A stretch of DNA of 64,000 nt from Thermus sp. CCB_US3_UF1 (GTDB taxonomy: Bacteria > Deinococcota > Deinococci > Deinococcales > Thermaceae), in assembly GCF_000236585.1 (NCBI RefSeq), contig NC_017278.1:558001-622000 (forward strand). The letters are read 5' to 3'. The translations under genes and the position numbers were made by a program. Positions within the stretch are counted from its first letter, which is position 1; every line of letters begins with the position of its first letter. Under the pieces are notes generated by a model that made no database searches, had not been told where the DNA came from, and worked only from the letters and a program-made list of their open reading frames with translations. Shown in pieces: positions 1-61,974 of the stretch.

Positions 1-585
1 GAAGACGCTATGCTTGGGCTCTCCGGTGATGAAGAGGTCGGCCTCCACCCGGCCCACCAGGCCCGCCGCCCCTCCGGAGACGATCACCACCTCCACCACG
101 GTGTCCGCCCCCCCCTGGTGCACCAGGGGCTGCATGCCCGTGAGCTGGCCCAGCCGGTCCGCCACCTGGACCAGGGGGGTGGGGAAGGGGAAGCGGCCCT
201 TTACGCCCACGTCGTAAGGCTCCAGGTCCCCTAGGCCCAGGGCCCGGGCGAGCTCGTGGTTGTTCCCCACCTCGGGGTGGGCGTCCAGGGGTAGGTGGGC
301 GGCGTAGAGGTTGATCCCACCCCGGAAGAGGAGTTCCAGCCGCCTTTTGTGGTGGCCGGTGATGGGAAAGGGGCGGCCCCAGAAGAGGCCGTGGTGGACC
401 AGGAGGAAGTCCACCCCCTCCTCGAGGGCCTTCTGGAAGATGGCTTCTCCAGCGTCCACCGCCGCCCCCACCTTGGTGACTTCCCCCTTGCCTTCCACCT
501 GTAAGCCGTTCAGGGAGGGGTCCTGGGGGAAGTCCTGGAGGCGGAGGTAGGCGTTCAGGTAGCGCACCAGCGCGTCCCGCTCCAT
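1..585 (-). CDS. Nif3/YbgI-family dinuclear metal protein, 3' end outside window
   Basis: Reading from the ATG at 585 gives 195 codons open to base 1, so the C-terminus is missing. The protein begins MERDALVRYLNAYL and carries the family's N-terminal landmarks: NGLQVEG, the metal-binding LLVHHGLFWG, AAHLPLDAH and, near the cut, ITGEPKHSVF. Nif3-like proteins are hexameric with a two-metal site, often labelled 'GTP cyclohydrolase 1 type 2 homolog', but their physiological substrate is unsettled. It is transcribed away from the S9 peptidase gene. Family assignment is firm; function is not. Confidence 0.9.
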   Translation of the reverse strand, partial: MERDALVRYLNAYLRLQDFPQDPSLNGLQVEGKGEVTKVGAAVDAGEAIFQKALEEGVDFLLVHHGLFWGRPFPITGHHKRRLELLFRGGINLYAAHLPLDAHPEVGNNHELARALGLGDLEPYDVGVKGRFPFPTPLVQVADRLGQLTGMQPLVHQGGADTVVEVVIVSGGAAGLVGRVEADLFITGEPKHSVF

Positions 586-3830: not shown

Positions 3831-4415
3831 TTAGATGGGTTTGCGCCCCTCCAGGGCCCGGCCCAGGGTGACCTCGTCCACGTACTCCAGGCTTCCCCCC
3901 ACGGGAAGGCCGTAGGCCAGCCGGGTGGCCTTCACCCCCCGGCGCTTCAGCTCCTCCGCCAGGTACAAGGCGGTGGCCTCGCCTTCCACGGTCATGGAGG
4001 TGGCCAGCACCACCTCCCTCACCCCGGCCAGCCTCGGCCAGAGGCTTTCCAGGTTGAGTTCCCGGGGCCCCACCCCCTCCAGGGGGTTCAGGGCCCCCCC
4101 CAGGACATGGTAGACCCCGGGGAACTCCCCGCTCCGCTCCAGGGCGAAGAGGTCGGCCACGCTCTCCACCACCGCCAAGAGGCCGCGGTCCCGGCCCTCG
4201 TCCTGGCAGATGGGGCAAAGCTCCCCCTCGGCCAGGTTGCCGCAGACCCGGCAGAGGCCCAAGGCTTCCAGGCCCGCCAAGGCCTCCCTTAGCTCCCCCG
4301 CCTCCTCCCGGTGGAAGGCCAGGTGCAAGGAGAGCTTCTGCGCCGTCTTGGGGCCGATCCCTGGCAGGCGGGAGAGGGCCCGGGCCAGCTTGAGGAGGCG
4401 CTCAGGGTAGCGCAT
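3831..4415 (-). CDS. recR: Recombination mediator protein RecR
   Basis: A 194-residue protein of normal RecR length. The N-terminal helix-hairpin-helix reads LSRLPGIGPKTAQKL. A C4 zinc finger follows (CRVCGNLAEGELCPIC), then the Toprim domain beginning LLAVVESVADLFALE and containing YHVLGGALNPLEG. The C-terminal GLPVGGSLEYVDEVTL Walker-B-like motif is intact. RecR forms tetrameric clamps and works with RecO and RecF to load RecA on gapped DNA. It starts 1 bp after the ebfC stop, the classic ebfC(ybaB)-recR pairing. Confidence 0.97.
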   Translation of the reverse strand: MRYPERLLKLARALSRLPGIGPKTAQKLSLHLAFHREEAGELREALAGLEALGLCRVCGNLAEGELCPICQDEGRDRGLLAVVESVADLFALERSGEFPGVYHVLGGALNPLEGVGPRELNLESLWPRLAGVREVVLATSMTVEGEATALYLAEELKRRGVKATRLAYGLPVGGSLEYVDEVTLGRALEGRKPI

Positions 4416-9483: not shown

Positions 9484-11432
9484 TGGCCTTCCTCCTGGCG
9501 TTTCTCTTGGTCCTGCTGACCGCGGCCCTGGCCTCGAGGCTTTCCCCCTGGCCCCTTTTCTTCCTCCTCGCCCTCCTCGCCGGGGCGGCCTGGGCCACGG
9601 GGGTGCGGGCCGAGGCCCTCCTGCCTTGGCTCCTCCTGGCCCTGGGCAGCATGGCTGCCCCTAGGGTCTACCTGGCCCCCCGGCGCCGGGCCCGCCGGGC
9701 CCCCCGTCAAGGGCGGCCCACCCGGGTCAAGACCACGGAGGAGGCCCAGGCCCTGGCCCAGCGCTACGAGGTCCTGGAGAAGGTGGGGGTGGGGGGGATG
9801 GCCACGGTCTACAAGGCCAAGGACCGGAAGACGGGCCGGGTGGTGGCCCTCAAGGTGCCCCAGGAGCGCTTCGTGGGCGACCCCCGCTTCGTGCGCCGCT
9901 TCCACCGGGAGGCCGAGGTCCTCTCCAAGATGGACCACCCCAACATCGTCAAGGTGTTTGACCACGGCCAGGTGGACGGGGTCCACTTCATCGCCATGGA
10001 GTACCTGGACGGGGAGGGGTTGGACAGGCTCATTGAGGAACGCCGCCTCAACCTGAGGCAGGCGGCGGCCATCCTGGCCCGGGTGGCGGACGCCCTCAAG
10101 CACATCCACGCCCAGGGCATCGTCCACCGGGACATCAAGCCGGGGAACATCATGGTCCTCAAGGGGGCCCTGAAGGAGGACGGGGTGGACCCCCGGGGGG
10201 TGCGCCTCATGGACTTCGGCATCGCCGCCGGCAAGGTCCTGACCCGCCTCACCATCACCGGGGCCCGGATCGGGACCCCGGTCTACATGAGCCCGGAGCA
10301 GGCCAAGGGGCAGAAGCTGGACCACCGCTCGGACATCTACTCCCTGGGCATCGTCCTCTACGAGGCCCTTACCGGACAGCCCCCCTTCACCGGGGGGTAC
10401 GAGACCGTGATCCACCAGCAGATCTTCCAGGTCCCCACCCCTCCCAAGCAGCTCAAGCCCGAGATCCCCCAGGCCCTGTCCGACCTGGTCCTGAGGATGC
10501 TGGAAAAGGACCCGGCCAAGCGCCCCACCCTAGACGAGGTCATCCAGGGGCTTTCCGGATCCTGGGAGGAGGAAAAGGGGCTGCCCCAGCCCTACTACCT
10601 CCTTCTGGGCGTGGAGGCCAAACGGGGGGTGGTGCGCCTTTTGGACGTCCAGGGGACGGCGGCCAGGCTCCTTTCCGGCATCGGTTCCGCCCCGGGCCAC
10701 TTCCCCGCCCCTCCCTTGGCCGTGGCCGCCGACCCCGAGGGGGGGATCTGGGTTTCCGTCTTTGAGCACGGGGCCAAGCTGCTCCACCGCTTCTCCCCCG
10801 AGGGGGAGCTGCTCCTCTCCGCGGGGCCCTACGGGATGAAGCCTGGGGAGTTCCTCTTCCCCGTGGCCCTGGCGGTGGCGGACGGAAGCCTTTTCGTCCT
10901 GGACGGGGAGACCGCCACCATCAGCCGCCTGGACCTGAAGGGGCAGTACCTGGGGCGGTTTGGGGGCCAGGGCCTGGGGCGGGGCAGCTTCCAGGACCCC
11001 AAGGCCCTGGTGGTGGCCGGGGAGTACCTTCTGGTCCTGGACTACGGCAACCGTCAGGTGCAGCGCCTTACCTTGGAGGGCCGCTACCTTTCCCGCTATG
11101 CCTTCCGCCGCTCCAAGGAGAGCGAGGAGCTGCGGCTCCTCGGGGGGGTGGGGGCGGGGGAAGGGCGGATCTACCTCTACGACGTGGAGGCGGCCAAGGT
11201 GCGGGCGGTGGACCCCTCGGGGGCCCTCCTGGCCTCCTACGCCCTCCCCCTTTTGGAGGGGGAGGACCGGATGAGCCTGGTGGAGCTTCTGCCCTGGGAC
11301 GGGGTGCTCTACGCCGCCCGGCGGGGTAGCAGCCGCGTGCACCGCATCGACCTCAGGACGGGGGAGGCCTTGCCCCCTCTGGAGGTCTACGCCCCGGTGC
11401 GCGCCCTGGCCCTGTGGAAGAACCCCCTATGA
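9483..11432 (+). CDS. Membrane Ser/Thr protein kinase with C-terminal NHL propeller
   Basis: A 649-residue protein. Residues 1-62 contain three hydrophobic segments, followed by a basic stretch. The Hanks-type kinase domain (about 90-360) is complete: GVGGMATVYKAK, VVALKVP, HRDIKPGNIM, MDFGIA, GTPVYMSPEQ and the HRSDIYSLGIVLYE region. From about residue 380 to the end NHL-like repeats occur (GQYLGRFGGQGLGRGSF, LLVLDYGNRQVQRL), predicting a beta-propeller. The usual external PASTA sensor is absent. With helices only at the N-terminus, the propeller should be on the same, cytoplasmic, side as the kinase. It overlaps the PP2C stop and the next response-regulator start. Confidence 0.92.
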   Translation: MAFLLAFLLVLLTAALASRLSPWPLFFLLALLAGAAWATGVRAEALLPWLLLALGSMAAPRVYLAPRRRARRAPRQGRPTRVKTTEEAQALAQRYEVLEKVGVGGMATVYKAKDRKTGRVVALKVPQERFVGDPRFVRRFHREAEVLSKMDHPNIVKVFDHGQVDGVHFIAMEYLDGEGLDRLIEERRLNLRQAAAILARVADALKHIHAQGIVHRDIKPGNIMVLKGALKEDGVDPRGVRLMDFGIAAGKVLTRLTITGARIGTPVYMSPEQAKGQKLDHRSDIYSLGIVLYEALTGQPPFTGGYETVIHQQIFQVPTPPKQLKPEIPQALSDLVLRMLEKDPAKRPTLDEVIQGLSGSWEEEKGLPQPYYLLLGVEAKRGVVRLLDVQGTAARLLSGIGSAPGHFPAPPLAVAADPEGGIWVSVFEHGAKLLHRFSPEGELLLSAGPYGMKPGEFLFPVALAVADGSLFVLDGETATISRLDLKGQYLGRFGGQGLGRGSFQDPKALVVAGEYLLVLDYGNRQVQRLTLEGRYLSRYAFRRSKESEELRLLGGVGAGEGRIYLYDVEAAKVRAVDPSGALLASYALPLLEGEDRMSLVELLPWDGVLYAARRGSSRVHRIDLRTGEALPPLEVYAPVRALALWKNPL

Positions 11433-12073
11433 GGGTCTTGCTGGTGGAGGACGACCCCGGGGTCAGGGAGGCCCTGGAGCTGGGCCTGGCCCTGGAGGGG
11501 CACGAGGTGCGGAGCGCCTCCCGCCCCAAGGAAGCCTTGGCCCACCTTCCCTGGGCCGAGGCGGTGGTGCTGGACGTGCTCCTGCCCGAGGGGGATGGGT
11601 TTAGCCTCCTCAAGGAGATCCGGGCCCGCTCCGAGGTGCCCGTGCTCATGCTCACCGCCTTGGATGCCGTGGAGTGGCGGGTCAAGGGGCTTAGGGAGGG
11701 GGCGGACGACTACCTGGTGAAGCCCTACAGCCTGCAGGAGCTCCTGGCCCGCCTCGAGGCCCTCCGCCGCCGGGTGCGGCGGGGGGAGGAGGTCTTGGCC
11801 TACGGGGACCTCCGCCTCTACCCCAGGCGGATGGAGGCCTACCGGGGGGAGAGGCGGCTTGCCCTGGGCCCCAAGGCCTTCCTCCTCCTCAAGGCCTTCC
11901 TGGAGGCTCCGGAGGAGGTGCTCTCCAAGGAGGCCCTGATGCTCCGGGTCTGGGGGGAGCCGGTGGAGCCCGCCACCTTGGAGGTCCACCTCTCCGCCCT
12001 GCGCAAGGCCCTGGGGGAGCCCAACCCCATCCAGACGGTGCGCGGGTATGGCTACCGCCTTTTCCTCCCTTAG
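11429..12073 (+). CDS. OmpR/PhoB-family response regulator
   Basis: A 214-residue two-domain regulator. The receiver has the acidic pair in VEDDPG, phospho-acceptor Asp49 in VLDVLLPEGDG, TALD and the conserved Lys in DDYLVKPYS. The C-terminal winged helix contains LGPKAFLLLKAFLE, LEVHLSALRKALGE and IQTVRGYGYRL. The ATG overlaps the kinase stop (ATGA) and is preferred to the upstream in-frame ATG at 11414. The following histidine kinase overlaps by 26 bp and is its presumed partner. Targets are unknown; the two exported proteins downstream are candidates. Confidence 0.95.
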   Translation: MRVLLVEDDPGVREALELGLALEGHEVRSASRPKEALAHLPWAEAVVLDVLLPEGDGFSLLKEIRARSEVPVLMLTALDAVEWRVKGLREGADDYLVKPYSLQELLARLEALRRRVRRGEEVLAYGDLRLYPRRMEAYRGERRLALGPKAFLLLKAFLEAPEEVLSKEALMLRVWGEPVEPATLEVHLSALRKALGEPNPIQTVRGYGYRLFLP

Positions 12074-13353
12074 GGGAAGGCTCTTTGCCCTCCTCTTCCT
12101 GGCCCTTCTCCTCCTGGCCCTGCCCTTGGCCTTCCTCTCCGCCCGGGAGGCCGGGCGGGCGGCCAGCGAGGACCTGCGCCGGGCCCTTTACACCCGGCTC
12201 TACCTCCTGCGGGAAGAGGGGCCCAGGGAGGCGGAGGCCCTTCTTCTGGAACTTTTCCGCCTGGCCCAGGTCTACGGGGGTGGGACGGGGTTTGTGGTCC
12301 GGGGGGAGGGGGTGGCCTTCACCGAGGAGCCGCCCCCGCCCCTTCCCCCAGGGTTGCGGGAGGCCCTGGCGGCGGGCCGGGCCTACCAGGGGGTCTGGCA
12401 GGGGGCGTTGTACGTGGCCCTGCCGGGGGAGGGGGGAGGGTTTGGCCTGGCGGTCCCCCTGGAGGGGGCGGCGGGGCTGGGGCGGCGCCTCCTCCTCCTC
12501 TACGCCACCTGGGGCGGGGGGGTGTTCCTCCTGGTCTTCCTCCTGGCGGCCTTGGGCTTCGCCTGGGCCTTGCGCCCCCTTTCCGCCCTGGCCCGGTCCT
12601 TGGCTGCCCGCTCCCCCCAGGACCTGAGCCCCCTGCCCGAGCCAGGGGTGGCGGAGCTAAAGCCCGTGGTGGAAGCCCTCAACGGCCTCCTGGCCCGGGT
12701 GGAGGGGCTTTTGGGGGAACTGGGGGAAAAGGAAGCGGCGGCCCGCCGCTTCGCCCGCCACGCCTCCCACGAGCTCCGCACCCCCCTCACCGCCCTGAAG
12801 GGCTACCTAGAGGTGCTCCGCCGGGCCCCGGAGCCCAGGGCCCTGGAGGGGGCCTGGCGCCAGGCCGAGCGGATGGAGCGCCTTCTCCAGGGCCTCCTCC
12901 GCCTCTCCCGCCTCGAGGCCGCCCACCTTCGCCCAGAGCCCCTGGACCTGCGGGCGTTTTTGGCGGAGCGGGGGGTGGCCGTGGAGGGGGAAGGGGTGGT
13001 CCTGGCCGACCCCGAGCTCCTGGCCCTGGCGGTGGAGAACGTGCTGGAGAACGCCCGCCGCCACGGGGGCCCCCCGGTGCGGGCCCAGCTCCTTCCCCAA
13101 GGGGAGGGGGTTTGGCTATGGCTGGTGGACTCGGGCCCGGGCTTCCCCCAAGACCTCCTCCCCCGGGCCCTGGAGCCCTTCGTCCACGGGGGGGGAGGGG
13201 ACGGGGCTGGGTCTGGCCCTGGTGGCGGCGGTGGCCCGGGCCCACGGGGGAAGGGCGGCGGTGGCCAACCGGGCGGGGGCGGCGGTGGGCCTTTACCTGC
13301 CTTTGGCTTCCCTTAAGCTTTCCCCCGGTGCGCCCTTTGGCGGGGAGGGCTAG
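12048..13353 (+). CDS. Sensor histidine kinase, frameshifted in the ATPase domain
   Basis: The N-terminus has a membrane helix (FALLFLALLLLALPLAF), an external segment of about 110 residues, a second helix, a HAMP-like linker and the DHp motif RHASHELRTPLTALKG with His241. The ATPase domain starts normally (N-box NVLENARRH, G1 DSGPGF). After FVHG the frame is lost at a run of eight G (13188-13195), and the sequence as written ends in low-complexity Gly/Pro at 13316. Reading seven G instead restores a textbook G2 box (GTGLGLALV), then AHGG, and ends at the TAG at 13351. As written the kinase lacks G2 and should be inactive. It may be a sequencing error, a mutation or a slippage site. Confidence 0.85.
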
Positions 13354-13377: not shown

Positions 13378-13926
13378 ATGAAGCGAACCCTTTTCGGACT
13401 CCTCCTTCTGGCGGCGGGCCTTTCCCTGGCCCAGGGGACGGACTACCGGCAGGCGGCCCTGGCGGCCCATGCCCTGGCCCGGTTGCAGGCGGTGGCCCAG
13501 GCGGCCCAAGGGGAGGAAAAGCTCCTCAAGTGGGCCCAGGAGGTAAAGGCCCGGGCGGAGCGGGACTACGAGGCCAAGGCCTACTTCAAGGCGGCCCGGG
13601 AGGCCCAGGCCGCCCTCCTCCTCTTCCGCGCGGCCCGAGGGCAGGCGGCGCCCACGCCCCCCGCTTCCCACCGGGGGTGGGACCACCGGAGGTGGGACCG
13701 GGGCCCGGGCTTCGGCCCTAGGCCTGGCCTCGAGGCCCGCCTGGCCCAGCGGGCCCCCGGGGCGGTGGAGCGGGCGGAAAAGGAGCTGGCCTACTACCGG
13801 GGGCAGGATCCCCTGGTCAAGGACCTGATCGCCGAGGCCAAGGGCAGGCTGGCCAAGGAACCGGGCCGGGCCCTCCTCCTGGCCCAGGCGGCCTTGGCCC
13901 TGATCTCCGCCGAACGGGGGTTCTAG
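13378..13926 (+). CDS. Small exported helical protein of unknown function
   Basis: A 182-residue protein with a clear signal peptide (MKRTLFGLLLLAAGLSLAQG, cleavage near Ala-Gln). The mature part is Ala/Arg-rich and helical, interrupted by a Trp/Arg/Gly/Pro stretch near residues 95-118 (HRGWDHRRWDRGPGF). The ATG at 13378 is chosen because GGAGGTG lies seven bases upstream; a GTG at 13369 is the alternative. I recognise no family. Position after the two-component genes suggests co-transcription and perhaps an envelope role. Confidence 0.65.
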   Translation: MKRTLFGLLLLAAGLSLAQGTDYRQAALAAHALARLQAVAQAAQGEEKLLKWAQEVKARAERDYEAKAYFKAAREAQAALLLFRAARGQAAPTPPASHRGWDHRRWDRGPGFGPRPGLEARLAQRAPGAVERAEKELAYYRGQDPLVKDLIAEAKGRLAKEPGRALLLAQAALALISAERGF

Positions 13927-21825: not shown

Positions 21826-22851
21826 TTAGGCCAGGAGGCTCGCGCACTGCCGGGCCACCCGGCCCGAGTACCCCTTCTCCAGGGCAAAGCGGAGGGCGGC
21901 CCCCTCCTCCTCGGGGGTGAGGGGGCGGCCCAGGTGGTGGGCCACCGCCCTCAGGTAAAGCCCCTTGTCAAAGGGCGGGAAGGTGAGGACCAGGCCGAAG
22001 CGCTCCGAGAGGGCCAGGGTGTCCTGGAGGGCGTCCCAGGCCTGGGGGCCTTCCCCGGGGAGGGGGTTTTCCCCCAGGTGGCGCACCAGGTGGCGGCGGT
22101 TGGAGGTGGCCAGGAGGAGGACGTTTTCCGGTGGGCCCTCCAGGCTTCCCTCCAGGAGGGCTTTCAGGTGATGGAAGGCCTCGTCCTCGGGGTCCAGGGA
22201 GAGGTCGTCCAGGAAGAGGAAGAAGCGGTGGGGCAAGAGGGCCAGGGTTTGCAGAAGGCGCTCCAGGTGGGCCAGGGCCCCGGTTTCCACCTCCACCATC
22301 CTGGCCCCTTCCAGGCGCAAAAGACCCTTGGCCGCGGTGCTCTTTCCCGTGCCCCGGGCCCCGTAGAGGAGGGTGTGCAGGGCGGGCCTGCCCTGGAGGA
22401 AGCGGCGGGCGTTTTCCTCTAGGGCCTCCCGCTGGGCCTCGTACCCCAGAAGCTCTCCTTCCCGGGGGAGGCGGGGGGAGGGGATGGGCTGGACCTCGCC
22501 CCCGAAGCGGAAGGCGCGGTAAAGGGCGAAGGGGTAGGGGCCGTGGGCCTGGAGGACCCGCACCAGGGCCTGGGGGTCGCGGGCCAGGAGGGCGGCCAAG
22601 GCCCCTTCCTCGGCGGGGTGGGGGGGGCGTTCCCCCAGGTCGCCCAGGGGGAAGTCCCGGCGCAGCCTGAGGAGCTTGGCGTGGAGGGCCTCGAGGTCCA
22701 TCCGGATCAGGTCCAGCACCCCAGGGGTGGGCCTCAAGGCCCGCCAGGCCCAGGGGGCCTTAAGGAGGCCCTGGGCCAGGGCGTAGCCCCAGGGTTCCCC
22801 CCGGGGCAGGTCCAGGGCCAGGAGGTCTATGGGGGTTTGGGGGTGTTCCAT
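21826..22851 (-). CDS. DUF815-type AAA+ ATPase
   Basis: A 341-residue protein with Walker A GARGTGKSTAAKGLL and Walker B FFLFLDDLSLD, followed by the sensor segment LLATSNRRHLV, typical of DUF815 ATPases of unknown role. The start at 22851 is chosen because TATCAT lies seven bases upstream. Any longer reading would translate the tRNA-Lys gene immediately upstream, which is clearly wrong. No partner gene is nearby. Confidence 0.8.
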   Translation of the reverse strand: MEHPQTPIDLLALDLPRGEPWGYALAQGLLKAPWAWRALRPTPGVLDLIRMDLEALHAKLLRLRRDFPLGDLGERPPHPAEEGALAALLARDPQALVRVLQAHGPYPFALYRAFRFGGEVQPIPSPRLPREGELLGYEAQREALEENARRFLQGRPALHTLLYGARGTGKSTAAKGLLRLEGARMVEVETGALAHLERLLQTLALLPHRFFLFLDDLSLDPEDEAFHHLKALLEGSLEGPPENVLLLATSNRRHLVRHLGENPLPGEGPQAWDALQDTLALSERFGLVLTFPPFDKGLYLRAVAHHLGRPLTPEEEGAALRFALEKGYSGRVARQCASLLA

Positions 22852-27369: not shown

Positions 27370-27939
27370 ATGAGAAAGGTCGTTTTCGCCCTGATGGTCC
27401 TTTCCCTGGTGGCCTTGGCCCAGCGTTACTTCCAGGACCAGGAACTGGAGCGCATCAAGACCGCGGGCAGGGCCTACGCTGAGGTTTTCCTCAACCAGCG
27501 TCCGGACCAGGCCCTCTGCTCCCTCCACAAAAACCGCCTCCCCGCTGACCTCCTGCCCCAGTTCCTGGAGGCCCAGCGGGCCCAGATCCGCTACCCGCAA
27601 AACGGCAAGCTCATGGGGGATTGGAAGAAGGGCGGGGCCATCTTCAACAACCTGCAGAAGGCCAACTGCTTCTCCTGCCACTTCGGCTCCCCCGTGCACC
27701 TGGGGGGGGACGTGGGCCCCAGCCTGGAGAAGTACGGTCTCAAGCGGGGCCAGTCCGAGGCGGTCCAGCGCTACACCTACGAGGTCATCTACAACGCCTG
27801 GGCCTTCTTCCCTTGCACGGTCATGTACCGCTTCGGGGCCCAGGGCCTCCTGACCCCGGAGGAGATCGCCGACGTGGTGGCCTACCTCCTGGACCCCGAG
27901 TCCGACTTCAACACCAAGCCCGCGGTGGGGTCTAAATGA
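27370..27939 (+). CDS. soxX: Cytochrome c SoxX, copy 1
   Basis: 189 residues with a signal peptide (MRKVVFALMVLSLVALAQ), the heme site CFSCH at 100-104, the VGPSLEKYG segment, and a Met ligand candidate in FFPCTVMYRFGA. The N-terminal extension (QALCSLHKNRLP) is shared with copy 2 and resembles type-2 SoxX. SoxX is the electron-accepting monoheme partner of SoxA. It overlaps soxB by 4 bp. Confidence 0.92.
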   Translation: MRKVVFALMVLSLVALAQRYFQDQELERIKTAGRAYAEVFLNQRPDQALCSLHKNRLPADLLPQFLEAQRAQIRYPQNGKLMGDWKKGGAIFNNLQKANCFSCHFGSPVHLGGDVGPSLEKYGLKRGQSEAVQRYTYEVIYNAWAFFPCTVMYRFGAQGLLTPEEIADVVAYLLDPESDFNTKPAVGSK

Positions 27940-35510: not shown

Positions 35511-36179
35511 ATGAGCCTTTCCCTTGGTGCGGCCTTTTTGGCGGGGGTGCTCTCCTTCCTCTCCCCTTGCGTGCTCCCCCTGGTCCCCACCTACCTCTTC
35601 TACCTGGGGGGGGAGCGGGGGCGCCCCCTTTTCAACGCCCTCTTCTTCGTTCTGGGCTTCGGGGTGGTCTTCTTCCTCCTGGGCCTGCCCTTCACCCTTC
35701 TTGGGGGGCTTCTCTTTGAGCACCGGCAGACCTTGGCCCGGGTGGGTGGGGGGGTGCTCCTCCTCCTCGGCCTCTACATGCTGGGCCTCCGCCCCCGCTG
35801 GGGGGTGAACCTGCGCTACGAGGGGGAGACGGGGCGCCCCTGGGGGGCCTTCCTCCTGGGGGCCACCCTGGGCCTGGGCTGGACCCCTTGCATCGGCCCC
35901 ATCCTGGGGGCCATCCTCACCCTGACCGCGGTGGGGGGCGGGGTGGGGTTTCTCCTGGCCTATATCCTGGGCCTGGCCCTGCCCTTCCTCCTGGTGGCCC
36001 TCTTCGCCGAGCGGCTCAAGGGCTGGCTCAGGCGGGCGGGGCGGCTTTCCCACCATGTGGAGCGCCTGGCGGGGGTGGTCCTCCTCCTGGTGGGGGCCCT
36101 GCTCCTCACCGGCACCTACTCCTCCCTGAACGCCTTCTTCCTGCGCATCACCCCCGAGTGGCTGCAGAAGTACCTCTAG
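35511..36179 (+). CDS. ccdA: CcdA-type thiol:disulfide membrane transporter
   Basis: 222 residues, six hydrophobic segments, with the paired Cys-Pro motifs of the CcdA/DsbD core: LSPCVLPLVPTYLF in helix 1 and GWTPCIGPILGAI in helix 4. It moves reducing power from cytoplasmic thioredoxin to periplasmic thioredoxins, here probably the SoxW-like protein and CcmG. Gene order soxD-ccdA-ccm connects sulfur oxidation with cytochrome c maturation. Confidence 0.93.
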   Translation: MSLSLGAAFLAGVLSFLSPCVLPLVPTYLFYLGGERGRPLFNALFFVLGFGVVFFLLGLPFTLLGGLLFEHRQTLARVGGGVLLLLGLYMLGLRPRWGVNLRYEGETGRPWGAFLLGATLGLGWTPCIGPILGAILTLTAVGGGVGFLLAYILGLALPFLLVALFAERLKGWLRRAGRLSHHVERLAGVVLLLVGALLLTGTYSSLNAFFLRITPEWLQKYL

Positions 36180-36225: not shown

Positions 36226-36804
36226 ATGCTCTTGCGCCTTCAGGCCCTCTCCAAGCGCTTTGGCCGGGACTGGGTGATCCGGGACCTCTCCTTCACCCTG
36301 GAGCGGGGGGAGGTGGTGGCCCTCCTGGGCCCCAACGGTTCCGGCAAGACCACCCTCCTCAGGCTCATGGCCGGCCTCCTCAAGCCCACCCGAGGCCGGG
36401 TGGAACGGGGGGGGAGGCCCCTTTTCCTGGCCAACCCTCCGGCCTTCCACCGGCACCTCACCGCTGGGGAGCACCTCCGCTATGACCTCCTCTTCCACGG
36501 CTTCCACGGCCAGGAAGGGGACTGGCGGGGGGCCTTGGCCCGGTTTGGCCTGCCCGAGGACCTGCCCCTTGCGGCCTTCTCCAGCGGGATGCGCAAGCGG
36601 CTTGCTCTGGCCCGCCTTTCCCTCCTAAAGCCCGACATCTGGCTCCTGGACGAACCGGAAACCGCCTTGGACGGGGAGGGGCGGGGGCTACTTCTGGAGG
36701 TGCTGGCCGAGGCCAGGGGACAAGGGGGGGTGGTCCTGGCCACCCACGACCGGGCCCTGGCGGAGGGGGTGGCGGACCGCACCCTGGAGCTGGGGGCGGC
36801 ATGA
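36226..36804 (+). CDS. ccmA: Heme exporter ATP-binding protein CcmA
   Basis: A 192-residue ABC ATPase of CcmA size with Walker A LLGPNGSGKTTLLRLMAG, signature FSSGMRKRLALARL, Walker B WLLDEPETALD and ATHD H-loop. With CcmB and CcmC it releases heme-loaded CcmE. A candidate -10 box TAAACT lies at 36211-36216, nine bases upstream of the start. It overlaps ccmB by 4 bp. Confidence 0.92.
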   Translation: MLLRLQALSKRFGRDWVIRDLSFTLERGEVVALLGPNGSGKTTLLRLMAGLLKPTRGRVERGGRPLFLANPPAFHRHLTAGEHLRYDLLFHGFHGQEGDWRGALARFGLPEDLPLAAFSSGMRKRLALARLSLLKPDIWLLDEPETALDGEGRGLLLEVLAEARGQGGVVLATHDRALAEGVADRTLELGAA

Positions 36805-38786: not shown

Positions 38787-40710
<1,924 letters not shown>

Positions 40711-43198: not shown

Positions 43199-46067
<2,869 letters not shown>

Positions 46068-49028: not shown

Positions 49029-50477
49029 TCATACCCGGGAAAAGGGCCAGGGCGCCTGCCCTCCTTCCAAAAGCCTCCGCGCCCGGGGAAGAGCCTCCGC
49101 CACCTCCCGGGCGAGGAGCCCCACCCCCTTTTCCCCGGCCCGGAGGTCCCCGGCCAGGCCGTGGAGGTAAACCCCAAGCCGGGCGGCGTCAAAGGGGGCA
49201 AGCCCCGCCGCCATAAGGGCGGCGATGGCCCCCGAGAGGACATCCCCCGTGCCGCCGGTGGCCAGGGCGGGGTTGCCCGTGGGGTTGACGGAAAGCCGCC
49301 CCCCCTCGGCCACCACCGTGGGGTTACCCTTGAGGACCACCACCTGGCCCGTGGCCTCGGCCAGGGCCCTGGCGGCCCCCAAGGGGTCCTTGGCCACCCC
49401 CTCCGGGGGCAGGCCGAGAAGCCGTCCCGCCTCCCCGGCGTGGGGGGTGAGGACGGCCCGCACCCCGGCCCGGCGGTAGAGCTCCACCACCTCCGGGTGC
49501 AAGGCGTCGGCGTCCAGCACCGTGGGCAGGTGGGCTTGCAGGGCCTCCAGGGCCCAGGCCCGCCCCCAGGCCCCCCCGCCCATGCCCACCGCCAGGGCCT
49601 CCACCCTCATGGGGGGAAGGCTGGGGGCGTTCACGGGGTGGAAGACGGCCTCGAGGGGCTCCAGGGGCGTGCCCTCCGGGGCCACCAGGTGCACCAGGCC
49701 CGCCCCCATGCGGTAGGCCCCCAGGGCGGCCAAAAGGGGCGCCCCGGCGTAGCGGAGCCCCTCCCCCCGGTACCCGCCCAGGACCCCCACCCGGCCCACG
49801 CTGCCCTTGTGGGCCGTGAGGGGCCGGGGGGGGAGGAGGGGGCGCAGGGCCTCGGGGGTGGCCACCTCGGGCAGGTCCTCCCTTTGCAGGAGGTGGCGGG
49901 GCAGGCCGATCTCCGCCAGGTAAAGTTGGCCGCAGGCCTCCCGGTTGAGGAGGTGGGGGGTTTTGAGGGCGGCGAAGGCCAGGGTGGCCGTGGCCCGCAC
50001 GTGGGGGGCGTAGGGGAGGCCGGAGGGCAGGTCCAGGGCGAGGATGGGGAGGCCGCTGGTGTTCATCCTCTCCACAAGCCCTGCGTAGAGGCCCTCCAGG
50101 GGTCGCTTGAGCCCGGTGCCGAAGAGGGCGTCCACCAGCACCTCCCCCCCCTTCCAGCTGGCCTCCTCCAGGGGGCGGATCTCCAGGCCGTGGGCGGCCA
50201 GGGCCTGCCGGGCCAGAAGGGCATCCCCTTCCTGCCCTTCCGCCGCGTAGACCCGCACCGCCACCCCTTCCAGGTGGAGGTGGCGGGCCAGGACCAGCCC
50301 GTCCCCGCCGTTGTTGCCCTTGCCCGCCAGGACCACCGCGGGGGCCTGGCCAAAGAGCTTTCGGTAAAGCCGGGCCGCCTTCATCCCCGCCCACTCCATG
50401 AGGAGAAGGGTAGGGTAACCCAGGGCCGCCGCCTTCTGGTCGGCTTCCCGCATGGCCTCGGGGGTGAAAAGCCTCAT
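49029..50477 (-). CDS. nnr: Bifunctional NAD(P)H-hydrate epimerase/dehydratase
   Basis: 482 residues. The N-terminal YjeF_N epimerase domain has GKGNNGGDGLVLARHL and LALDLPSGLPY. The C-terminal ribokinase-like dehydratase has VGMGGGAWG, TVLDADALH, LTPHAGEAGRLLG and the catalytic GTGDVLSGAIAALMA. It repairs hydrated NAD(P)H, relevant at high temperature. TAGGCT ends seven bases before the ATG at 50477, implying a leaderless transcript. Confidence 0.95.
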   Translation of the reverse strand: MRLFTPEAMREADQKAAALGYPTLLLMEWAGMKAARLYRKLFGQAPAVVLAGKGNNGGDGLVLARHLHLEGVAVRVYAAEGQEGDALLARQALAAHGLEIRPLEEASWKGGEVLVDALFGTGLKRPLEGLYAGLVERMNTSGLPILALDLPSGLPYAPHVRATATLAFAALKTPHLLNREACGQLYLAEIGLPRHLLQREDLPEVATPEALRPLLPPRPLTAHKGSVGRVGVLGGYRGEGLRYAGAPLLAALGAYRMGAGLVHLVAPEGTPLEPLEAVFHPVNAPSLPPMRVEALAVGMGGGAWGRAWALEALQAHLPTVLDADALHPEVVELYRRAGVRAVLTPHAGEAGRLLGLPPEGVAKDPLGAARALAEATGQVVVLKGNPTVVAEGGRLSVNPTGNPALATGGTGDVLSGAIAALMAAGLAPFDAARLGVYLHGLAGDLRAGEKGVGLLAREVAEALPRARRLLEGGQAPWPFSRV

Positions 50478-54512: not shown

Positions 54513-56942
<2,430 letters not shown>

Positions 56943-56965
<23 letters not shown>

Positions 56966-57497
56966 ACGCCCAAAGCTTCTCCACGATCTCCGCCACCACC
57001 TCCTCCACCCGCCGGTGATCCGTGGATACGTGCACGTGGGCTTCCCGGTAGATGGGGGTGCGCGCTTGCAGGAGGGTGCGGATGCGCTCCAGGGGGTTTT
57101 CCACCTGGAGCAGGGGCCTTTCCCCAGGCTTGCGGGTGGCCCGTTCCAGGATGGTTTCTGGGCTGGCCCATAGGGCCACCACCGGGCCCCTATGCAAGAG
57201 GGCCTGGCGGTTTTCCGGGTCCACGAAGGTACCCCCCCCCAGGGCCAGGACCAGGTAGTCCTTGCCCACCAGCTCCCGCACCGCCTCCTTTTCCATGCGC
57301 CGGAAGGCCTCCTCCCCCAGGTGGCGGAAGATGTCGGGGATGGGGAGGCCGGTGCGCCGCTCGATGTAGCGGTCCAGGTCGATGAAGTGGAGCATGAGGG
57401 CCCGGGCCAGCTCGCGGCCGATGCGGCTTTTCCCCACCCCCATGAAGCCGGTGAGGCTCACGAAGGTGGCGGGGCGGGGGACCTCGAGGCGGGCCAT
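56943..57497 (-). CDS. aroK: Shikimate kinase
   Basis: 184 residues with Walker A GFMGVGKSRIGREL, shikimate-binding Asp in FIDLDRYIE, the GGG motif ALGGGTF and the lid arginine in TRKPGERPLL. It makes shikimate 3-phosphate. It lies 15 bp after aroC. Confidence 0.97.
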
Positions 57498-61009: not shown

Positions 61010-61974
61010 TCACTGACCACCTCCACCTTGTGCGTCCAGTAGGGGGATCTCCAGGGTTTCGTCCTTGAGGGCCAGGACCACGCGGTCGCCCTCGATGCGG
61101 CGGACCACCGCCTCGCTTCCGGGCAAGGGGCTGCCCACGGGCAGGACCAGATACCCGTCCTTGGTTTCCAGGATGGCCACGCTTACGGGTCCCAGCAGGG
61201 TACCCGAAAGCCTCAAGCCCCGCTCCTCCACCAGGGCCTGCAAGGGCCCCTTGCTGGGAGTCTCGGGCGCAGGGGGTTCGGAGGGTTTCCCCGGGGCTTG
61301 GACGGCCTCCTGGGGCAAGGGGGTTTCCACCAGGCCCTCGGGCGCGGCGGGCGCCACCGGGGATTCCACCCGGGCCGGGGGCACATCGGCCCTGGGGGTG
61401 GGGGCGAGGACCTTGGGGGCCGGCAGGGCCCCGGAGGTGCCCGGCAGGGGCCTGGGGGCGGGGCTCACCCTGGGGGTGGGTAGGGGCGTACCTTGGCTCA
61501 CCCGCACCGGCTGGCCTGTGGGCACCGGCTGGGGTACAGGGGCGGGGCTTACCCCGGGGGTGGGTAGGGGAGCGGGCGCGGGGACCTCCACCACCAAGGG
61601 GACGAAGGGGTTGGGGGGTGGGGTTTCCCGGGAGGCCCGGGGCAGGGGCAGGGGGGCGGGCTCCGGGGTTGGGGCCGGTGCCGTAACCGTGGTCGTGGAC
61701 GCCCCCCCTTTGGGGGCTGCCTGGGGCGCTGGGCTTTCGGGGTGGTTTCCGCCAGGGGGGGGATGGGAGGGGCTTCGATGGCCTTGGGGGCCTCCTGGGG
61801 CGTCGGGGTAGGGGTGGGGGGGAGGGCGGCCTCCCCGGGGGTCTGGGCGGGCAGGTAGAACCCCACGTACCAAAGGGTGACGGCGCCCACCAGGAGGAGG
61901 CCAGCCAAGGGGATTTTTGTGGACTGGGGCAGGTTGCGCCAAGCCTCGGCGAGGCGGGCTAGGGTTTCCTTCAC
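61010..61974 (-). CDS. pilW: PilW-type pilus/competence protein, probable frameshift
   Basis: It begins at the GTG at 61974 after GGAGGTG: MKETLARLAEAWRNLPQ, then one membrane helix (IPLAGLLLVGAVTLWYVGFYLP) and a Pro/Thr-rich stretch. That frame becomes codon-poor after about 61702. The adjacent frame then carries a long Pro-rich linker and a C-terminal domain (LRLSGTLLGPVSVAILETKDGYLVLPVG) to 61010. One extra base, most simply in the run of seven C (61702-61708, plus strand), joins them into about 321 residues. It lies between pilO and pilQ as in other Thermus pilMNOWQ clusters. Confidence 0.75.
61456..61570 (-). repeat. Imperfect 31-bp direct repeat in pilW linker
   Basis: 61456-61486 and 61540-61570 match at 29 of 31 positions and encode similar Pro-rich segments (LPTPGVSPAP and LPTPRVSPAP). 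It looks like an internal duplication of the linker. Confidence 0.7.

What the first reader, a model, noticed from the sequence alone, without database searches (positions are those of the whole stretch)
13188..13195. Histidine kinase disrupted at a G8 run exactly before its G2 box
Seen: with eight G the frame runs into low-complexity sequence. With seven G the next codons give GTGLGLALV, then AHGG and a normal end at 13353. Known: Thermus dnaX uses transcriptional slippage on a homopolymer, so a G run could yield a mixture of active and inactive kinase. Alternatives are a sequencing error or a simple mutation. If real, the response regulator would be partly uncoupled from its sensor.
Basis: partly seen in the sequence, partly recalled or inferred. 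Interest (0 to 1): 0.55.

Follow-up and report, generated by a model that had tools for sequence, protein, structure and literature searches.

The report
Probable sequencing error in kinase gene
A sensor-kinase gene of a hot-spring bacterium looks broken at a run of eight G's, but every related species found to have the gene has it intact, and the same published genome also shows the DNA primase gene broken at a similar run, so this is most likely an uncorrected sequencing error or else a simple one-base mutation.

Summary
The window is the Thermus sp. CCB_US3_UF1 chromosome. The histidine-kinase frame from 12048 meets G8 at 13188-13195 and runs into a Gly/Pro-rich tail ending at 13316; the expected C-terminus (EGTGLGLALV...AHGG...) lies in another frame and ends at 13353. 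In 24 of 24 orthologues (26 other Thermus genomes searched) the frame is continuous, with never more than six G there. So there is no conserved recoding site.

G8 is ordinary here: 427 overlapping matches genome-wide. In 482 gene pairs compared with one relative (864 kb of this genome), this genome shows three frame breaks, each at a G/C run of 7-9: this kinase, an SbcD-type gene and dnaG. Primase is essential (recalled), so the dnaG break is probably not in the living DNA. Three of 482 falls within published homopolymer-error rates for Illumina assemblies; this genome is 454 reads corrected with Illumina. The upstream protein and shifted tail remain conserved, so the break is recent or unreal.

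Verdict: probably an assembly error (0.62); a recent real indel is the main rival (0.28). Transcriptional slippage and phase variation lack support but are not excluded without reads and cDNA.

The parts
13188..13195 (+). Run of eight G at which the kinase reading frame changes in the deposited sequence
   Evidence: Sequence; frame change against G003; 24 of 24 orthologues continuous with at most six G there
12048..13316 (+). Histidine kinase ORF as deposited: HisKA complete, HATPase_c cut before the G2 box, then a Gly/Pro-rich tail out of the ancestral frame from about 13195 to 13316
   Evidence: ORF; Pfam HisKA, and HATPase_c 2-62/111 on the part up to 13187
13195..13353 (+). C-terminal part of the kinase in the other frame (G2 box GTGLGLALV to stop 13351-13353)
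   Evidence: Translation; matches 24 of 24 orthologues; Pfam HATPase_c 71-110/111, E 1.7e-4, below the curated cut-off for this short piece
11414..12073 (+). Intact OmpR/PhoB-type response regulator directly upstream, overlapping the kinase start; ATG 11429 is a likelier start
   Evidence: ORF; Pfam Response_reg and Trans_reg_C; present in 24 of 24 orthologous loci at 85-91% identity
13381..13926 (+). Downstream neighbour: small protein with a signal-like N-terminus, function unknown; conserved neighbour, not part of the frame break
   Evidence: ORF; match downstream of the kinase in 24 of 24 orthologous loci, one of them (L024) over 63 residues only

Best explanation
The G8 is most likely an uncorrected single-base homopolymer error in the deposited Thermus sp. 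CCB_US3_UF1 assembly. The living strain would then carry an ordinary, intact membrane sensor histidine kinase paired with the intact response regulator at 11414-12073. Shown: the frame break in the deposited sequence, continuous frames in the orthologues, and two further breaks at long G/C runs in this assembly, one of them in dnaG. Inferred: that the break is not in the cell's DNA.
For: The break is private to this genome: 24 of 24 orthologues are continuous. In 482 gene pairs this genome shows three frame breaks, at G/C runs of 7, 8 and 9; inside the aligned stretches there are 1000 runs of 6, 359 of 7, 77 of 8 and 3 of 9, so the break rate climbs with run length. One break splits dnaG after residue 429 of 569, where 24 of 26 other Thermus genomes have one continuous match; primase is essential in bacteria studied (recalled). 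The genome was made from 21x 454 reads with Newbler and corrected with Illumina reads (PMC4599208, passages). 3 of 482 (0.6%) lies within the 0.32-1.02% of genes with homopolymer errors reported for an Illumina assembly and below the 2.13-2.78% for 454 (PMC3277595, passages). PMC3711429 expects singleton frameshifts validated by protein matches to be sequencing errors rather than genuine indels (passage). The kinase is not decaying upstream: pN/pS median 0.32 against 15 relatives, 0.36 among relatives.
Against: The authors say that putative errors were corrected by consensus of 454 and 115x Illumina reads. 454 errors are reported to be biased towards A/T rather than G/C runs. Real slippage mutations also prefer long runs, so the dependence on run length does not separate the two. 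In the short tail pN/pS is somewhat higher for the window (median 0.52) than among relatives (0.38), as a recent loss could give. No raw reads could be seen.
Confidence: 0.62

Rival explanations
1. A real, recent one-base insertion by replication slippage has inactivated the kinase in this strain (a young pseudogene). The product would keep the phosphoacceptor histidine and the N, G1 and F regions but lose the G2 box, leaving the response regulator without its own kinase or with a protein able only to dephosphorylate it (inferred).
For: Long G runs are mutable (general knowledge). The break falls in a regulatory gene that a cultured strain could plausibly lose (inferred). Tail pN/pS is slightly raised (0.52 against 0.38).
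Against: The same class of break hits dnaG in the same assembly. No decay upstream. The response regulator remains intact.
Confidence: 0.28
2. A contingency (phase-variable) locus: the run changes length by replication slippage, so cells in a population switch the kinase on and off.
For: Poly-G tracts do this in other bacteria, for example Campylobacter (PMC539331, passage). An earlier survey lists T. thermophilus as the only genome above 50% G+C with over-represented poly-C/poly-G tracts of 7 or 8 in genes (PMC2831843, one passage).
Against: No orthologue has a run of 7 or more there and none of 24 is out of frame. Runs of eight are common in this genome and 78 of the 80 aligned runs of length 8-9 show no break.
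Confidence: 0.05
3. Transcriptional slippage on the G8: RNA polymerase makes transcripts of mixed run length, so some kinase is complete and some truncated.
For: Thermus RNA polymerase slips on nine A in dnaX, with about half of the product affected (PMC1088944 and PMC5009743, passages). The shifted tail is still conserved.
Against: The run is not conserved. The RNA from the run onward folds about as well as shuffles (z -1.05; 30 of 200 shuffles as good). E. coli RNA polymerase needed at least 7 T, and more A, in one study (PMC6260861, passages); no data on G runs appeared in the passages seen. 78 of 80 aligned runs of length 8-9 show no frame break, where strong slippage would be harmful.
Confidence: 0.03

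Closest known systems
Homopolymer-associated frameshift errors in 454/Illumina assemblies (PMC3277595, passages)
   Same: Single-genome frame break at a long homopolymer; more frequent at longer runs; about 0.6% of compared genes here
   Different: 454 errors are described as biased to A/T runs, here all three are G/C runs in a G+C-rich genome; raw reads not checked
Thermus thermophilus dnaX transcriptional slippage (PMC1088944, PMC5009743, passages)
   Same: Same genus; a homopolymer inside a coding sequence
   Different: dnaX has nine A and a continuous long ORF in the DNA; here G8, the DNA itself is out of frame, and no run is conserved in relatives
Poly-G contingency loci, e.g. Campylobacter (PMC539331, passage)
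   Same: G run inside a coding sequence
   Different: No run-length variation found among 24 orthologues beyond 2-6 G with the frame kept; population variation not testable
OmpR-family regulator plus HisKA/HATPase_c sensor kinase pair (CpxA/QseC-like by profile and PDB matches)
   Same: Gene order and domains as in 24 Thermus orthologous loci
   Different: HATPase_c is split between two frames in the deposited sequence

Membership tests
Sensor histidine kinase (HisKA/HATPase_c) | HisKA phosphoacceptor domain | tested here: met
   PF00512 E 3.3e-16, residues 233-291
Sensor histidine kinase (HisKA/HATPase_c) | Complete ATP-binding domain including the G2 box in one frame | tested here: not met
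   As deposited, HATPase_c reaches only profile positions 2-62 before the run (2-75 with the out-of-frame tail); the rest lies in another frame. The G003 orthologue reaches 2-110 of 111
Transcriptional-slippage recoding (dnaX type) | Slippery run conserved among relatives | tested here: not met
   0 of 24 orthologues have 7 or more G
Transcriptional-slippage recoding (dnaX type) | Transcripts of mixed run length | not testable with these tools
   No cDNA data
Poly-G contingency locus | Relatives or siblings with on and off run lengths | tested here: not met
   24 of 24 orthologues of other species in frame; siblings of the same strain not available
Homopolymer assembly error | Break private to one genome, at a long run, with other such breaks in the same assembly, some in genes that cannot be lost | tested here: met
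   that dnaG cannot be lost is recalled
Homopolymer assembly error | Raw reads disagree with the consensus | not testable with these tools
   No reads available

The most novel reading that the evidence does not exclude
The G8 is real, and this Thermus tolerates frame-breaking G/C runs in several genes (kinase, sbcD-type, dnaG) because its RNA polymerase or ribosome slips on them often enough to supply working protein, comparable to the poly(A) rescue reported for insect endosymbionts (recalled; only its reference entry was seen).
Probability: 0.03. Interest if true: 0.65.

Novelty: not a real feature. Interest (0 to 1): 0.1.

Why it matters
Mainly as a caution: in this G+C-rich genome long G runs are common, and 3 of 482 compared genes (0.6%) carry frame breaks at them in the deposited sequence, so claims of pseudogenes or recoding at such runs need the reads first. 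If the break were real, it would mark a very recent loss, or switching, of a sensor kinase conserved in 24 of 26 other Thermus genomes.

Tried and rejected
A codon-usage test of the frame on both sides of each G/C run of 7 or more (window plus 400 kb) was too weak to use: of the runs of length 8, 34 came out unshifted, 29 unclear and 0 shifted, so it did not flag the finding's own G8 either. It flagged three runs of length 7 in the 400-kb sample; none is among the breaks, and I did not look at them one by one. It was replaced by the homology test.

RNA structure after the run as a slippage stimulator was tested and gave nothing. A programmed +1 ribosomal shift of the prfB kind was considered only from memory: there is no stop codon at the site and no conservation.

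The one scan of genome contigs gave 5 Thermus loci, on contigs of the same lengths as those of G018, G023, G013, G009 and G024, so they add nothing independent, and 3 distant kinases that were not used. No second assembly of this strain or species was available.

Papers: searches were seen as listings; one search returned no paper and none of the listed titles (3 papers) concerns this kinase. These cover only the held open-access library, so no claim is made about the rest.

Rows dropped or against: pairs under 60% identity or under 80 bits were dropped before counting. The reverse direction (genes of this genome against G003) gave 15 frame changes in 489 pairs; some lie at gene edges or in weak matches and were not sorted, so no rate is claimed for G003. 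The test sees changes of frame only, not in-frame stops. In one search the upstream pN/pS used the 15 of 24 relatives whose match has exactly 1140 bases, and one of them (L033, 1.03) is an outlier, perhaps misaligned; the tail used all 24.

Full report
What is there. The window is bases 558001-622000 of a contig of 2,243,772 bases, in a genome of 2,263,488 bases; these are the chromosome and genome lengths printed for Thermus sp. CCB_US3_UF1 (PMC4599208, passages seen). At 11414-12073 lies an intact OmpR/PhoB-type response regulator, and from 12048 a histidine kinase. At 13188-13195 the kinase meets eight G. As written, the frame continues into a Gly/Pro-rich tail to 13316; the expected C-terminus with GTGLGLALV lies in the frame that starts at 13195 and ends at 13353. 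Pfam's HATPase_c is divided between the two: positions 2-62 upstream, 71-110 in the shifted tail.

Relatives. Of 26 other Thermus genomes searched, 24 have an orthologue at 69-83% identity; the two without (G017, G020) are the least complete, at 87% and 65%. In 24 of 24 the kinase is one continuous frame through the glycine box to a stop at the equivalent place. The G run directly after the His codon is 5 long in 13, 6 in 9 and 2 in 2 of the 24, never 7 or more. The break is thus confined to this one genome, and the run is where it is because the conserved glycines make a G run there in most species. The response regulator (85-91% identity) and the downstream gene flank the kinase in all 24 loci, the latter in L024 over 63 residues only.

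How common such runs and breaks are. Eight G in a row match 220 + 207 times, overlaps counted, in this genome. To learn how often such runs break genes, genes predicted in 1.6 Mb of the relative G003 were compared by tblastn with 864 kb of this genome, window included: 482 pairs, 151,328 residues aligned, 7 frame changes. In four of the seven the gene is continuous here and changes frame in G003. Three are breaks in this genome: the kinase (G8), an SbcD-type gene (G9) and DnaG primase (run of 7). Inside the aligned stretches there are 1000 G/C runs of length 6, 359 of 7, 77 of 8 and 3 of 9, so the breaks fall on 0, 1, 1 and 1 of these. A first, smaller round (464 kb against 800 kb, 134 pairs) had shown the kinase break and one that belongs to G003.

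DnaG. NCBIfam names the G003 protein dnaG (TIGR01391). In this genome the match is split (residues 1-429 and 414-568 of 569 in two frames), while 24 of 26 other genomes have one continuous match; of the other two, G024 is split elsewhere and the incomplete G020 has only a fragment. The SbcD-type gene is continuous in 23 of 26 others; G008 is split too, G017 has an in-frame stop and G020 no match. Primase, including its helicase-binding end, is essential in bacteria studied (recalled), so a break there in the assembly of a growing strain points to sequence error. G003 shows the same kind of break in genes that look like threonyl- and glycyl-tRNA synthetase (names by inspection of the sequence, not by a family search).

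Error or mutation. The genome was assembled from 21x 454 reads with Newbler and corrected with 115x Illumina GA IIx reads. Genes with homopolymer errors made up 2.13-2.78% of a 454 and 0.32-1.02% of an Illumina assembly in one comparison (PMC3277595, passages); 3 of 482 is 0.6%. PMC3711429 expects singleton frameshifts validated by protein matches to be sequencing errors rather than genuine indels (passage). Against this, the same comparison found 454 errors biased to A/T, and the genome's authors say that putative errors were corrected. Selection does not decide: upstream pN/pS is not raised (median 0.32 against 15 relatives, 0.36 among them), and the 52-residue tail shows 0.52 against 0.38 (24 relatives). 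The break is therefore recent or unreal.

Slippage and phase variation. Thermus dnaX uses nine A (PMC1088944, PMC5009743, passages). Nothing comparable is conserved here; the RNA from the run onward is not unusually structured (z -1.05); and 78 of 80 aligned runs of length 8-9 show no frame break. T. thermophilus was noted earlier as the only genome above 50% G+C with over-represented poly-G/C tracts of 7 or 8 in genes (PMC2831843, one passage), so such runs are normal in the genus. Neither hypothesis can be excluded without reads and cDNA.

What would follow. If G8 is an error, the pair is an ordinary two-component system; its signal is not known from anything found here (profile and PDB matches are to general CpxA, QseC and PhoR-type kinases). 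If G8 is real, the protein keeps the phosphoacceptor domain but lacks the G2 box, so it should not bind ATP normally; it might still dephosphorylate the regulator (inferred, from general knowledge of histidine kinases).

Conclusion. Most likely an uncorrected homopolymer error (0.62), next a recent real indel (0.28); phase variation 0.05, slippage 0.03.

Noticed in passing
G000:C2:782169-783871 (L221, L225), outside the window: dnaG (DNA primase) is split between two frames at a G/C run of 7 in this assembly; 24 of 26 other Thermus genomes have one continuous match.
   Followed up: partly
G000:C2:877802-878879 (L251), outside the window: An SbcD-type nuclease gene is split between two frames at a G9 run; continuous in 23 of 26 other Thermus genomes, also split in G008.
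   Followed up: partly
G003 stretches compared: The relative G003 shows frame changes in genes that look like threonyl-tRNA synthetase, glycyl-tRNA synthetase and a ClpC-type protein (by inspection), so that assembly too probably holds homopolymer errors.
   Followed up: no
G024:C3:125120-126828 (L222, L224): dnaG is also split in genome G024, at another place (residues 333-342).
   Followed up: no
window 13381-13926: A small protein with a signal-like N-terminus follows the kinase in 24 of 24 orthologous loci; a candidate member or target of the regulatory unit.
   Followed up: no
window 108-115, 4094-4101, 22620-22627, 27702-27709, 35606-35613, 36407-36414, 40357-40364, 45027-45034, 49826-49833, 50144-50151, 56164-56171, 57232-57240, 61755-61762: Thirteen further G or C runs of length 8-9 in the window; none was flagged as a frame break by the codon test, and the kinase was the only break found in the window by comparison with G003.
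   Followed up: partly
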